This document shows positions 40,185-45,713 of a DNA stretch of 58,700 nucleotides, in pieces (the stretch's first letter is position 1; each line of letters opens with the position of its first letter). This DNA is from Bacteroidales bacterium (GTDB lineage: Bacteria; Bacteroidota; Bacteroidia; Bacteroidales; UBA7960). A program made the position numbers and the translations under genes. Location of the stretch: NCBI GenBank assembly GCA_019429055.1, contig JAHYJP010000002.1:1-58700 (forward strand), written 5' to 3'. The notes below the pieces were generated by a model, which saw only the letters and a program-made list of their open reading frames with translations, was not told where the DNA came from and made no database searches.

Positions 40185-40412
40185 TTATTTTCCGATCATT
40201 ACTTCGGTAGATTTAACAATGGCAAAAACTTCGTCGCCAACCTTCAGATTCATATCCTCCACACTATCAATGGTTATCATTGAGCTTATGATGGTTCCAT
40301 CGGCAATTTTTACGGCTACTTTTGCCATTACGCTACCAATTTTTACTTCTGTAATGGTTCCCCTGATCTTGTTTCGTGCACTTAATTCCATGATTTTCTT
40401 GTTTTGATTCAA
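40185..40412 (-). CDS. Mop/TOBE-domain molybdopterin/molybdate-binding protein
   Basis: SARNKIRGTITEVKIGSVMAKVAVKIADGTIISSMITIDSVEDMNLKVGDEVFAIVKSTEVMIGK is a classical Mop fold. Confidence 0.92.
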   Translation of the reverse strand: MNQNKKIMELSARNKIRGTITEVKIGSVMAKVAVKIADGTIISSMITIDSVEDMNLKVGDEVFAIVKSTEVMIGK

Positions 40413-40494
40413 AATGATTAATGAAACTTTATTCAGAAATTAAACAACTCTGATACACGAAAGTTCTTAGCCGGGCTTGTTTAGGCTCATAAAA

Positions 40495-41586
40495 TCAGGG
40501 GATCTCCCTGAAAAAGTACATTTCCATAACCGATTTTACAGAACGATCGGCGTAAAATTCTGAAGGGTGAAAAATACGGTAAAATCCCCCGTCTTCAGGA
40601 TTGTCAGGAACAGCAAATATTGGAAAAACCTGATCGGTTCTGTTAAACAATTCGCTGTAGCTGTATATGGCTCTGTAGCCGTCAACCGATGCAAAACAAA
40701 CCAGTCCGTGACGGTTCCAATCAGGATCAAAGGGTTTGAAATCTTCATGCATAACCTTGAGTAATGCCGGCCCTTGGAAATACCGGGCTTCATGATATCC
40801 CATACCCATGCCATAAAAACTGGAATGATAGCGGGTGTAATTTTGCTTTTTTTCATCAGGTAGGATAGTCTGGACATATTCTTCGTCCATCAGAACGGTA
40901 ACTTCAGGGCTATACATGGGCTCATAATCTCTGTCAATAACGTAATCTTTTTTATCGAAAGAATGAACTGTTATTTTTACCGGATTTTCCAGAACCCTGT
41001 ATGCAAAAAGATCATTGGCTGAAACAACTTTCCAGTTTTCACCTATTTCATAATCAACTTCCCTGCGGTAAGGCACAATAGGTGCAGCTTCTGTAGCAAT
41101 GAGTATCTGGTGCGGATTATTGGTGTGAAATATTTCTGACCAGCTAAAAGAAACTGTTTCGCCTTTGTCATTTTCAATTATTACATAAAGATCAATGGCA
41201 GGCCTGAAAATATCCATATTCTTTTTATCCTGGTTAAACGGGTGCAGCAAATCAAACAAAGAATAACCACGATAACGGTAAGCGCCCAAAAAATGGATTC
41301 CGGTTTCCTCATCAAAAAGTGATTCTTTAATCATCACCTCTCTCTTGTAATGGTTGCCTAAATTTACTTTTCCTGGTTTTTTAATCTCTCCGGCAACTTC
41401 AAGTTCTCCGGTATTCATACTTACTTCATCGGTTTGGTGAAAAAGACTGTTGCCATCCTGGGCCATAGGTTTGGAGGCACCACTCAATGCATCTGCAAGG
41501 GTTTCGGGTAGTAAATCGCAGCCCCAAAGAGAAAAACCAATAATAATAACAACAAAAAAACGGGCAATGGAATAGTGTTTTAGCAT
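40495..41586 (-). CDS. Lipoprotein with two sulfite-oxidase/molybdopterin-oxidoreductase-like (SUOX-fold) segments
   Basis: Start MLKHYSIARFFVVIIIGFSLWGC; segment 1 LEVAGEIKKPGKVNL..YRYRGYSLFDLL..ILIATEAAPIVPYR; segment 2 EARYFQGPALLKVM..SVDGYRAIYSYSELF..GGFYRIFHPSEFYADRSVKSV. Confidence 0.65.
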   Translation of the reverse strand: MLKHYSIARFFVVIIIGFSLWGCDLLPETLADALSGASKPMAQDGNSLFHQTDEVSMNTGELEVAGEIKKPGKVNLGNHYKREVMIKESLFDEETGIHFLGAYRYRGYSLFDLLHPFNQDKKNMDIFRPAIDLYVIIENDKGETVSFSWSEIFHTNNPHQILIATEAAPIVPYRREVDYEIGENWKVVSANDLFAYRVLENPVKITVHSFDKKDYVIDRDYEPMYSPEVTVLMDEEYVQTILPDEKKQNYTRYHSSFYGMGMGYHEARYFQGPALLKVMHEDFKPFDPDWNRHGLVCFASVDGYRAIYSYSELFNRTDQVFPIFAVPDNPEDGGFYRIFHPSEFYADRSVKSVMEMYFFREIP

Positions 41587-41603
41587 ACTTAAAAAGTTAA
41601 ATC

Positions 41604-41626
41604 CGAAATGTAAAAATTGCATAACG
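41604..41626. promoter_or_regulatory. ModE-like box A (5' of the SUOX-like lipoprotein)
   Basis: CGAAATGTAAAAATTGCATAACG; matches boxes B and C and the CGnTAT..ATAACG ModE-box pattern. Confidence 0.6.
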
Positions 41627-44602: not shown

Positions 44603-44660
44603 TACCGTCGTCGTAAATCTCTGAACCGTGCAAAATTTCAATTATTAGCGACGATTCAAA

Positions 44661-44690
44661 GACCGGGTGCTCATACAGGCCCGGTCTTTT
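44661..44690 (+). terminator. Terminator of the TonB receptor gene
   Basis: GACCGGG...CCCGGTC followed by TTTTTCTGTTTTT. Confidence 0.75.
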
Positions 44691-44756
44691 TCTGTTTTTG
44701 CCATCAGATTGAACTGAGAATATTTTTTTTACTTATATCTTTGAAAGAAAAAAATT

Positions 44757-45713
44757 ATGAGGATCCGAATCATTTCCTTATTGGTAATTTTTATTACTGT
44801 AATTCTAACCGCCTGTAATTTAGGTGGAAAGCGGGATGACTCCCATACCATCCATATCATCCACGCCGGTAGTCTTACCTTGCCGGTTCATGAACTATCC
44901 CGGGCTTTCAGGGAAGAAAACCCTGATGTAAGGATTCTTACCGAAGCCTGGGGCAGTAAAGCGGGTGCCCGCAGGGTAATTGATATCAACACACCGGCCG
45001 ATTTGTTTATGTCGGCCGATTATATGGTAATTGAAAATATGCTGATTCCCGATCATGCAAGCTGGTACCTGCCTTTCGCCACAAACGAGCTTTCTATTGT
45101 ATATACCGAGCGTTCGCGTTACGCAAGTGAAATTAACCGGGATAACTGGATGGATATACTAATGCGGAATGATGTGAAGTATGGCCGCAGCAATCCTGAC
45201 ATGGACCCATGCGGGGTGCGCAGCGTTTTTACCATTAAGCTGGCAGAAAAGAAATTTAACAAACAAGGTTTTGCACAGCAGCTTCTCGAAAAGGATACAG
45301 ATAATATTCGTCCAAAGGAAACAGACCTTATTGCATTACTTGAGCAAAATCATATCGATTATATCTTTCTTTATAAAAGTGTTGCTGTTCAGCACGGACT
45401 TAAATACCTTGAACTACCCGACAGCCTGGCACTGGGAAATTTTGAACTGAATGACTGGTATCGTAAGGTAAGCATTGAAACCCTGGGTACACGCCCTGGT
45501 GAAACCATTACGGAATATGGCGAAGCCATGGTGTATGGGCTTACCATTCCGCATAAATCGGAAAACCGGGAACTGGCAGCAAGGTTTATAAATTTTGTTA
45601 TGCATCCCGACAAGGGACAAGCCATCCTGAAAAGATTAGGGCAGGAATCGGTGGGTAAATTTGACAATCCTTATAAAGATGATATTCCTGAAGAAATTAT
45701 CAGGCCAGATTAG
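44757..45713 (+). CDS. WtpA/ModA-like molybdate/tungstate substrate-binding lipoprotein
   Basis: Lipobox ILTAC; IIHAGSLTLPVHELSRAFREENPDV; WGSKAGARRVIDINTPADLFMSAD; FATNELSIVYTE; GRSNPDMDPCGVRS. Confidence 0.87.
   Translation: MRIRIISLLVIFITVILTACNLGGKRDDSHTIHIIHAGSLTLPVHELSRAFREENPDVRILTEAWGSKAGARRVIDINTPADLFMSADYMVIENMLIPDHASWYLPFATNELSIVYTERSRYASEINRDNWMDILMRNDVKYGRSNPDMDPCGVRSVFTIKLAEKKFNKQGFAQQLLEKDTDNIRPKETDLIALLEQNHIDYIFLYKSVAVQHGLKYLELPDSLALGNFELNDWYRKVSIETLGTRPGETITEYGEAMVYGLTIPHKSENRELAARFINFVMHPDKGQAILKRLGQESVGKFDNPYKDDIPEEIIRPD

What the first reader, a model, noticed from the sequence alone, without database searches (positions are those of the whole stretch)
40185..45713. Candidate outer-membrane molybdate/tungstate (or Moco-ligand) scavenging locus
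Mop protein, SUOX-like lipoprotein, ModE, TonB-dependent receptor and a WtpA-like binding lipoprotein lie together, with ModE boxes at the receptor and lipoprotein promoters. Oxyanions usually cross the outer membrane through porins, so a ModE-controlled TonB receptor suggests active, high-affinity uptake of Mo/W or of a Mo-chelate, with the lipoprotein as a possible capture partner. The function is an inference from neighbourhood and operators.
Basis: inference. Interest (0 to 1): 0.82.

Follow-up and report, generated by a model that had tools for sequence, protein, structure and literature searches.

The report
Outer-membrane receptor for scarce molybdenum/tungsten
A bacterium from the Bacteroidota group carries, next to its tungstate-binding protein and a molybdenum-type gene switch, an energy-driven outer-membrane importer that appears to belong to an undescribed family for scavenging molybdenum or tungsten, metals usually thought to enter through passive pores.

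Summary
In detail: Mop, a SUOX-like lipoprotein, HTH-only ModE, a TonB-dependent receptor (TBDT) and a WtpA lipoprotein lie at 40185-45713. Of the four best ModE-type palindromes in the 4.18 Mb genome, two are in the TBDT promoter and one is upstream of the SUOX-like gene. WtpA has no box and follows a terminator-like hairpin.

Across 80 TBDT-anchored loci, receptors of this family repeatedly sit with the SUOX-like gene, and often with WtpABC and ModE. One locus reads AOR-SUOX-TBDT-ModE-WtpABC-MoeA-MoaA. Starting instead from the SUOX-like protein, 47 of 51 well-flanked loci carry Wtp, ModE, AOR, MoeA or this TBDT. Of genomes carrying it, 70 of 73 also have WtpA, against 53 of 322 without. ModE-type palindromes precede these operons in 31 of 58 sister loci; permuted controls average 1.25.

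Heme and B12 identities fail: scores are below curated cut-offs, no histidine lies between FRAP and NPxL, and Rfam finds no riboswitch.

Best reading: a ModE-controlled TBDT family importing a tungsten/molybdenum species for WtpA-WtpBC. Its chemical form and the SUOX-like role remain unknown. No paper found in the searched library describes this.

The parts
40185..40412 (-). Mop (TOBE) small molybdate/tungstate-binding protein; neighbour, not conserved core
   Evidence: TIGR00638 75.9 bits, cut-off 55; PF03459; near the TBDT only in L031
40495..41586 (-). Tandem SUOX-like lipoprotein (ATG at 41586), unnamed family
   Evidence: Alignment A2; AF2 pLDDT 88.8 and fold match to sulfite oxidase, prob 0.94, E 1.9e-3; hhalign 95% to a combined PF00174 profile; no invariant Cys
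41604..41626 (.). ModE-type palindrome upstream of the SUOX-like gene, CGAAATGTAAAAATTGCATAACG
   Evidence: 2 mismatches to CGNTATGCAN5TGCATANCG; counterparts upstream of the SUOX-like gene in L031, L032, L039 and L045
41822..42193 (+). ModE-like DNA-binding protein without Mop domains
   Evidence: PF00126 above cut-off; TIGR00637 69 bits, below the 98.5 cut-off
42209..42231 (.). ModE-type palindrome 1 of the TBDT promoter, CGATATGCAGATTCTGCATAACG
   Evidence: 0 mismatches; the only such site in the genome
42259..42281 (.). ModE-type palindrome 2 of the TBDT promoter, CGTTATGCAAATATTGCATAATC
   Evidence: 2 mismatches; 50 bp from palindrome 1
42299..44602 (+). TonB-dependent receptor with N-terminal CarboxypepD_reg-like domain; family motif LDD[ML]CR[ST]GRxxGG[FM]K
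   Evidence: PF07715, PF00593, PF13715; subfamily boundary; motif in most of 110 relatives; AF2 barrel and plug
44658..44694 (+). Terminator-like hairpin between TBDT and WtpA
   Evidence: -21.8 kcal/mol, z -3.58, stem followed by a U-run
44757..45713 (+). WtpA-type tungstate/molybdate-binding lipoprotein
   Evidence: TIGR03730 288.4 bits, cut-off 242.75; nearest solved relatives are archaeal ModA/WtpA, 2onk E 1.3e-63

Best explanation
The locus encodes a ModE-controlled outer-membrane uptake system for tungsten and/or molybdenum. Shown: the genes, the palindromes, and the family-wide linkage to WtpABC, ModE, AOR and MoeA/MoaA. Inferred: when Mo/W is scarce, ModE releases the palindromes and the TBDT and SUOX-like lipoprotein are made. 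The TBDT, powered through TonB, carries a Mo/W species (free oxyanion or a chelate) into the periplasm. WtpA binds the oxyanion and passes it to WtpBC, encoded elsewhere in the genome beside a tungsten-type aldehyde:ferredoxin oxidoreductase. The SUOX-like protein is a non-catalytic binding, relay or release factor between the TBDT and WtpA. Tungsten is the likelier metal because the binding protein is WtpA-type and AOR genes recur nearby.
For: Palindromes: three of the four best in the genome are here. In 138 non-redundant loci of this family (the window included), 74 palindromes fall in the 300 bp upstream of TBDT/SUOX/WtpA/WtpB/LP300/ModE genes (0.74 per kb in ModE-bearing loci, 0.34 in others), against 21 in 2.0 Mb elsewhere, about 0.01 per kb. 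Sister receptors: 31 of 58 loci carry a 24-bp form with E. coli spacing; permuted half-sites mean 1.25, max 7. E. coli consensus ATCGNTATATA-N6-TATATANCGAT from PMC545781. Neighbourhoods: subfamily 15 loci, 11 with the SUOX-like gene, 9 with ModE, 5 with Wtp, many cut by contig ends; sister 65 loci, 40 SUOX, 12 Wtp, 9 ModE. L065 = AOR-SUOX-TBDT-ModE-WtpA-WtpB-WtpC-MoeA-MoaA. SUOX-anchored search, not chosen by receptor: of 51 well-flanked loci 31 have Wtp, 31 this TBDT, 15 both, 47 at least one of Wtp/TBDT/ModE/AOR/MoeA. Genomes: 70 of 73 with the SUOX-like gene have WtpA, against 53 of 322 without; Fisher P 1e-39, phylogeny not corrected. Own genome: one WtpA/ModA-type binding protein among two PF13531 hits; WtpB, WtpC and AOR on contig C162.
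Against: No transport, binding or expression data. WtpBC are not in this locus and have no palindrome upstream; they sit on another contig of a MAG with 4.7% estimated contamination. ModE lacks a sensor domain, so its effector is unknown. About a third of the sister receptors have no SUOX-like, Wtp or ModE gene within 6 kb, so the family may not be uniform in substrate. Several SUOX-Wtp operons have no TBDT (L156, L172, L175 and others), so the receptor is not obligatory. WtpA itself has no palindrome.
Confidence: 0.8

Rival explanations
1. The receptor imports iron (siderophore or heme) or vitamin B12 and lies beside the Mo/W genes by chance or as co-regulated baggage.
For: Generic similarity: TIGR01785 hemin receptors 214.5 bits, TIGR01779 B12 144 bits; fold matches to Cir, BtuB and ChuA. 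JGI names many homologues 'iron complex outermembrane receptor protein'.
Against: All scores are far below the curated cut-offs (317 and 600). No His lies between the FRAP and NPxL motifs; a family-specific DDxCR[ST]GRxxGGxK motif stands there. No Rfam riboswitch in the window. Repeated linkage to Wtp/ModE and palindromes across the family.
Confidence: 0.08
2. A sub-version of the best explanation: the receptor imports a Mo/W chelate or an intact pterin-type cofactor, and the tandem SUOX-like protein binds that ligand in the periplasm and releases the metal for WtpA.
For: The SUOX fold is the molybdopterin-binding fold of sulfite oxidase. Best solved receptor match by sequence and fold is PqqU, which imports the redox cofactor PQQ. 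TBDT ligands are usually larger than an oxyanion (established knowledge).
Against: The SUOX-like protein lacks an invariant Cys, the Mo ligand of sulfite oxidases. It also occurs in Wtp operons without the receptor. No pterin-salvage or chelator-synthesis gene was recognised among the window proteins scanned (not all window ORFs were scanned). The PqqU match is only about 18% identical.
Confidence: 0.3
3. The other sub-version: uptake is of free tungstate/molybdate oxyanion, the SUOX-like protein being a second oxyanion-binding or docking protein.
For: WtpA-type proteins bind the oxyanion; ligand-region motifs are kept (DPCGxRS and an RxxExxL Glu, alignment). No metallophore genes were recognised. 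Invariant Arg and Lys residues in the receptor motif.
Against: Free oxyanions can cross through porins, and TBDTs usually need a ligand with many contacts (established knowledge).
Confidence: 0.45

Closest known systems
TonB-dependent metal/cofactor receptors under metal or cofactor regulation (NikR-type locus for Ni, B12 BtuB; PMC5317091)
   Same: TBDT tied to a metal or cofactor by a specific regulatory site and gene context
   Different: Here the regulator is ModE-like and the binding protein is WtpA; no Mo/W receptor was found in the papers searched
PqqU (YncD), TBDT for pyrroloquinoline quinone
   Same: Best sequence and fold match among solved receptors
   Different: About 18% identity in the fold alignment; no known tie to ModE or Wtp
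XusAB of Bacteroides (TBDT plus lipoprotein; PMC13142918)
   Same: Bacteroidota TBDT paired with a lipoprotein to scavenge a scarce metal; XusA is among the fold matches
   Different: Iron-siderophore substrate; the SUOX-like protein is often not lipidated in relatives, and the LP300 lipoproteins of sister loci resemble nothing in Pfam or PDB
P. aeruginosa T6SS-secreted ModA with outer-membrane protein IcmP (cited in PMC11734730)
   Same: Dedicated outer-membrane step in molybdate acquisition
   Different: Secreted binding protein and IcmP rather than a ModE-controlled TBDT; original paper not readable here
Archaeal WtpABC tungstate transporter
   Same: WtpA above the curated TIGR03730 cut-off; WtpB- and WtpC-like genes in the genome
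   Different: Here in a diderm, with an outer-membrane receptor and a SUOX-like partner, and wtpA split from wtpBC

Membership tests
TonB-dependent receptor | Plug and beta-barrel domains | tested here: met
   PF07715 1e-24, PF00593 1.4e-43; AF2 barrel, PDB matches prob 1.00
Heme receptor (TIGR01785) | Curated score cut-off; conserved His between FRAP and NPxL | tested here: not met
   214.5 against 316.85 bits; no His in that stretch of the aligned receptors
B12 receptor BtuB (TIGR01779) | Curated score cut-off; cobalamin riboswitch | tested here: not met
   144 against 599.7 bits; no Rfam match in the window
WtpA tungstate-binding protein (TIGR03730) | Curated score cut-off | tested here: met
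   288.4 against 242.75 bits; PRK04168 model 324.5 against 355 not reached
WtpA tungstate-binding protein (TIGR03730) | Actual tungstate binding | not testable with these tools
   needs ITC or a structure
ModE regulator | ModE-type HTH domain | tested here: inconclusive
   HTH_1 above cut-off; TIGR00637 69 against 98.5 bits; E. coli-like palindromes nearby
ModE regulator | C-terminal Mop molybdate-sensing domains | tested here: not met
   123 aa, HTH only; single-domain DNA-binding ModE proteins are reported from Desulfovibrio species (PMC545781)
Sulfite-oxidase family enzyme (PF00174) | Curated Pfam match | tested here: not met
   4 of 33 members match weakly, best E 0.013; the window protein has none
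Sulfite-oxidase family enzyme (PF00174) | SUOX fold | tested here: inconclusive
   Foldseek 2a9d prob 0.94, E 1.9e-3 but low TM-score 0.30; hhalign 95% to the combined 20-sequence profile, 0.5 to 18% to its subsets
Sulfite-oxidase family enzyme (PF00174) | Mo-ligand Cys | tested here: not met
   no invariant or near-invariant Cys
SusCD/XusAB-like receptor-lipoprotein complex | Physical complex with a surface lipoprotein | not testable with these tools
   complex prediction not available

The most novel reading that the evidence does not exclude
A TonB-dependent receptor family dedicated to importing a Mo/W chelate or an intact tungsto-/molybdopterin-type cofactor, with a tandem SUOX-fold protein repurposed as the periplasmic binding and metal-release factor feeding WtpA. 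This would be a cofactor or metallophore salvage route for molybdenum and tungsten.
Probability: 0.25. Interest if true: 0.9.

Novelty: new variant of a known kind. Interest (0 to 1): 0.74.

Why it matters
How molybdate and tungstate cross the outer membrane is usually left to porins. A ModE-controlled TBDT family would mean active, high-affinity acquisition of Mo/W in Bacteroidota. It would give a function to receptors annotated only as 'iron complex receptor' and to an unannotated SUOX-like family present in 73 of 395 sampled genomes of the order, and it would make the outer-membrane step of tungsten/molybdenum nutrition directly testable.

Tried and rejected
Heme, B12 and siderophore identity of the receptor. 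A palindrome at the WtpA, Mop or wtpBC promoters (none). Rfam riboswitches in the window (none). PDB homologues of the SUOX-like protein by sequence (none useful). Pfam and PDB identity of the LP300 lipoproteins of sister loci (none). Search of the phylum with a strict receptor score: only the window's own genome matched, so the close receptor is rare across the phylum. Large proteins next to SUOX-like genes in loci lacking this TBDT were read in case they were further receptors; none looked like one. Sigma-70 promoter scan: no more hits than shuffles. The first null for box scores was inflated by short loci that contain the boxes themselves; it was replaced by permuted half-sites. Plasmid collection: all matches under 60% identity, best-listed ones about 22-23%. 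The ModE-box paper by Studholme and Pau and the P. aeruginosa ModA/IcmP paper were not readable.

Full report
OBSERVATION. The Mop protein, the WtpA-type binding protein and the TBDT are clear by curated or domain models. The ModE-like protein has the HTH but scores below the ModE model's cut-off and lacks Mop domains. The SUOX-like lipoprotein has no Pfam or NCBIfam match of its own. Real start codons are probably internal ATGs: 41586 (SUOX-like), 41822 (ModE), 42299 (TBDT).

OPERATORS. CGNTATGCAnnnnnTGCATANCG occurs with 0 mismatches at 42209-42231 and with 2 at 42259-42281 and 41604-41626. Only one other site in the 4.18 Mb genome has 2 mismatches and none other has fewer. The outer arms match those of the E. 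coli ModE consensus ATCGNTATATA-N6-TATATANCGAT quoted in PMC545781. The first two sites lie 50 bp apart in the TBDT promoter; the third lies upstream of the SUOX-like gene. WtpA has no such site and is separated from the TBDT by a stable terminator-like hairpin followed by a TATCTTTG element of the Bacteroidota -7 type. This part of the finding therefore needs correcting if 'lipoprotein' means WtpA.

RELATIVES. A search of 5.8 billion proteins shows a sharp subfamily boundary among full-length hits, from 46% identity down to 40%. A genome scan with the subfamily profile gave 15 subfamily loci and 65 sister loci (33-39% identity) with flanking DNA. In the subfamily 11 of 15 have the SUOX-like gene and 9 have ModE; most of the rest are cut by contig ends, L038 being a real exception. 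In the sister group 40 of 65 have the SUOX-like gene, 12 have Wtp genes, and 55 have one or two unannotated lipoproteins (here called LP300) near the receptor, usually just upstream.

STRONGEST SINGLE LOCI. L065 reads AOR, SUOX-like, TBDT, ModE, WtpA, WtpB, WtpC, MoeA, MoaA (MoeA and MoaA named by reading the sequence). L047 and L048 read ModE, WtpA, TBDT, SUOX-like, WtpB, WtpC, with an extra ferredoxin-type membrane protein between TBDT and SUOX-like in L047. L050, L053, L055, L060 and L101 carry LP300 lipoproteins, TBDT, SUOX-like and WtpABC together.

RECIPROCAL TEST. Searching 395 genomes of the order with the SUOX-like profile found 73 carriers; across the phylum 4 of 399. Flanks of 72 such loci were fetched independently of the receptor. 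Of 51 with at least 3 kb on both sides, 31 have Wtp genes, 31 this TBDT family, 15 both, and 47 have at least one of Wtp, TBDT, ModE, AOR or MoeA. Loci L156 and L175 read ModE-WtpA-SUOX-WtpB-WtpC-MoeA-MoaA without a TBDT, and L214 and L216 (another family of the phylum) read WtpABC-SUOX-MoeA-MoaA next to AOR (L215 has one extra gene between WtpC and SUOX). The SUOX-like protein is thus a general partner of the Wtp system, and the TBDT an outer-membrane addition in a subset. Genome level: 70 of 73 carriers have WtpA against 53 of 322 non-carriers; not corrected for phylogeny. Some of these genomes are the same organisms as in the receptor scan, so the two tests overlap.

PALINDROMES ACROSS THE FAMILY. 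In 138 non-redundant loci (the window included), 74 sites lie within 300 bp upstream of TBDT/SUOX/WtpA/WtpB/LP300/ModE genes (0.74 per kb in loci with ModE, 0.34 in loci without), against 21 in 2.0 Mb elsewhere, about 0.01 per kb. For sister receptors alone, tested with a consensus taken from the window, its subfamily and E. coli, a 24-bp form with the E. coli spacing is found upstream of 31 of 58 operons; permuted half-sites give a mean of 1.25 and a maximum of 7. By gene class, 60% of ModE genes, 25% of LP300, 15% of TBDT, 13% of SUOX-like and 12.5% of WtpA genes have a site within 250 bp upstream, against 4.2% of other genes in the same loci. These rates are per gene, so genes inside an operon lower them.

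PROTEINS. WtpA is closest to archaeal ModA/WtpA structures (2onk and others) and the aligned ligand-region motifs are kept. The SUOX-like protein is modelled confidently (pLDDT 88.8). Its best informative fold match is sulfite oxidase (prob 0.94, E 1.9e-3, but TM-score 0.30); a profile comparison with a combined set of PF00174 proteins gives 95% probability over residues 61-181, though small subsets give little. Reading the alignment suggests two SUOX-like repeats, but no Cys is invariant, so it is probably not an enzyme of that family. Several relatives have no lipobox, which argues for a periplasmic role. Most members of the receptor family share FRxxxLDD[ML]CR[ST]GRxxGG[FM]KxANPxLxPE, with no heme histidine. 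The receptor model is of middling quality (pLDDT 75) and matches PqqU best; XusA is also among the matches.

GENOME. The MAG has one WtpA/ModA-type protein; the only other PF13531 hit is a fragment followed by an iron-type ABC permease. It has one other TOBE protein, WtpC. WtpC and WtpB are on contig C162, divergent from a tungsten-type AOR, with no palindrome upstream. A second AOR-like protein and a formate-dehydrogenase-like molybdoenzyme are present. Naming of these enzymes is by family and reading of sequence, not by assay.

MECHANISM. Shown: genes, palindromes, conserved linkage. Inferred: low Mo/W relieves ModE repression; the TBDT imports a W or Mo species; the SUOX-like protein relays or releases it; WtpA-WtpBC take the oxyanion into the cytoplasm for AOR and molybdoenzymes. 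Whether the imported species is the free oxyanion, a chelate or a cofactor cannot be decided here. The confidences given for the two sub-versions are shares of the best explanation, not additional to it.

LITERATURE. Ten searches of 5.39 million open papers turned up no TBDT assigned to molybdate or tungstate. PMC11734730 cites a P. aeruginosa system in which secreted ModA works with outer-membrane protein IcmP, so a dedicated outer-membrane step for molybdate is not unprecedented. PMC5317091 assigns TBDTs to nickel, cobalamin and thiamine by the same logic of regulatory site plus context. Most subscription papers and regulon databases were not searchable, so novelty is judged within that limit.

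VERDICT. It is a new variant of a known kind: a TBDT metal-uptake system with a new metal class and regulator.

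Noticed in passing
L053:9029-9928, L077:9016-9945 and 50-odd sister loci: One or two unannotated lipoproteins (LP300) directly upstream of sister receptors, often with the same palindromes; no Pfam or PDB relatives. Candidate surface capture proteins.
   Followed up: partly
L055:14506-15741 and L052:4855-6093: An alginate-export-type beta-barrel (PF13372 in L055) lies just upstream of WtpB, a possible alternative outer-membrane channel for the oxyanion.
   Followed up: no
L047:12327-13724: A 466-aa membrane protein with 4Fe-4S domains lies between TBDT and SUOX-like genes (also in L046), hinting at a redox step.
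   Followed up: no
L018:6775-12632 (contig C162): WtpC-WtpB divergent from a tungsten-type AOR, then a radical SAM protein, a MoaD/ThiS-like protein and a ThiF/MoeB-like protein, with no ModE-type palindrome at the wtpBC or AOR promoters.
   Followed up: partly
40185-40412 and 41822-42193: HTH-only ModE and a free-standing Mop protein are both encoded here; Mop could be the effector in trans, but the pair was seen together in only one relative (L031).
   Followed up: no
P0197: The SUOX-like family reaches an Elusimicrobia MAG, so it is not confined to Bacteroidota.
   Followed up: no
L104 and L105: Receptors of the family without SUOX-like or Wtp genes on their short contigs but still with the palindrome upstream. 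They may be orphan members or have another substrate.
   Followed up: partly
L048:4479-5546: The SUOX-like gene is split into two open frames, either a sequencing error or a broken copy.
   Followed up: no
17008-21405 and 50315-56812: Two very large proteins with type IX secretion C-terminal sorting domains.
   Followed up: no
14273-15772: Protein with an ethylbenzene-dehydrogenase-type domain (PF09459), a domain found in a subunit of some molybdoenzymes.
   Followed up: no
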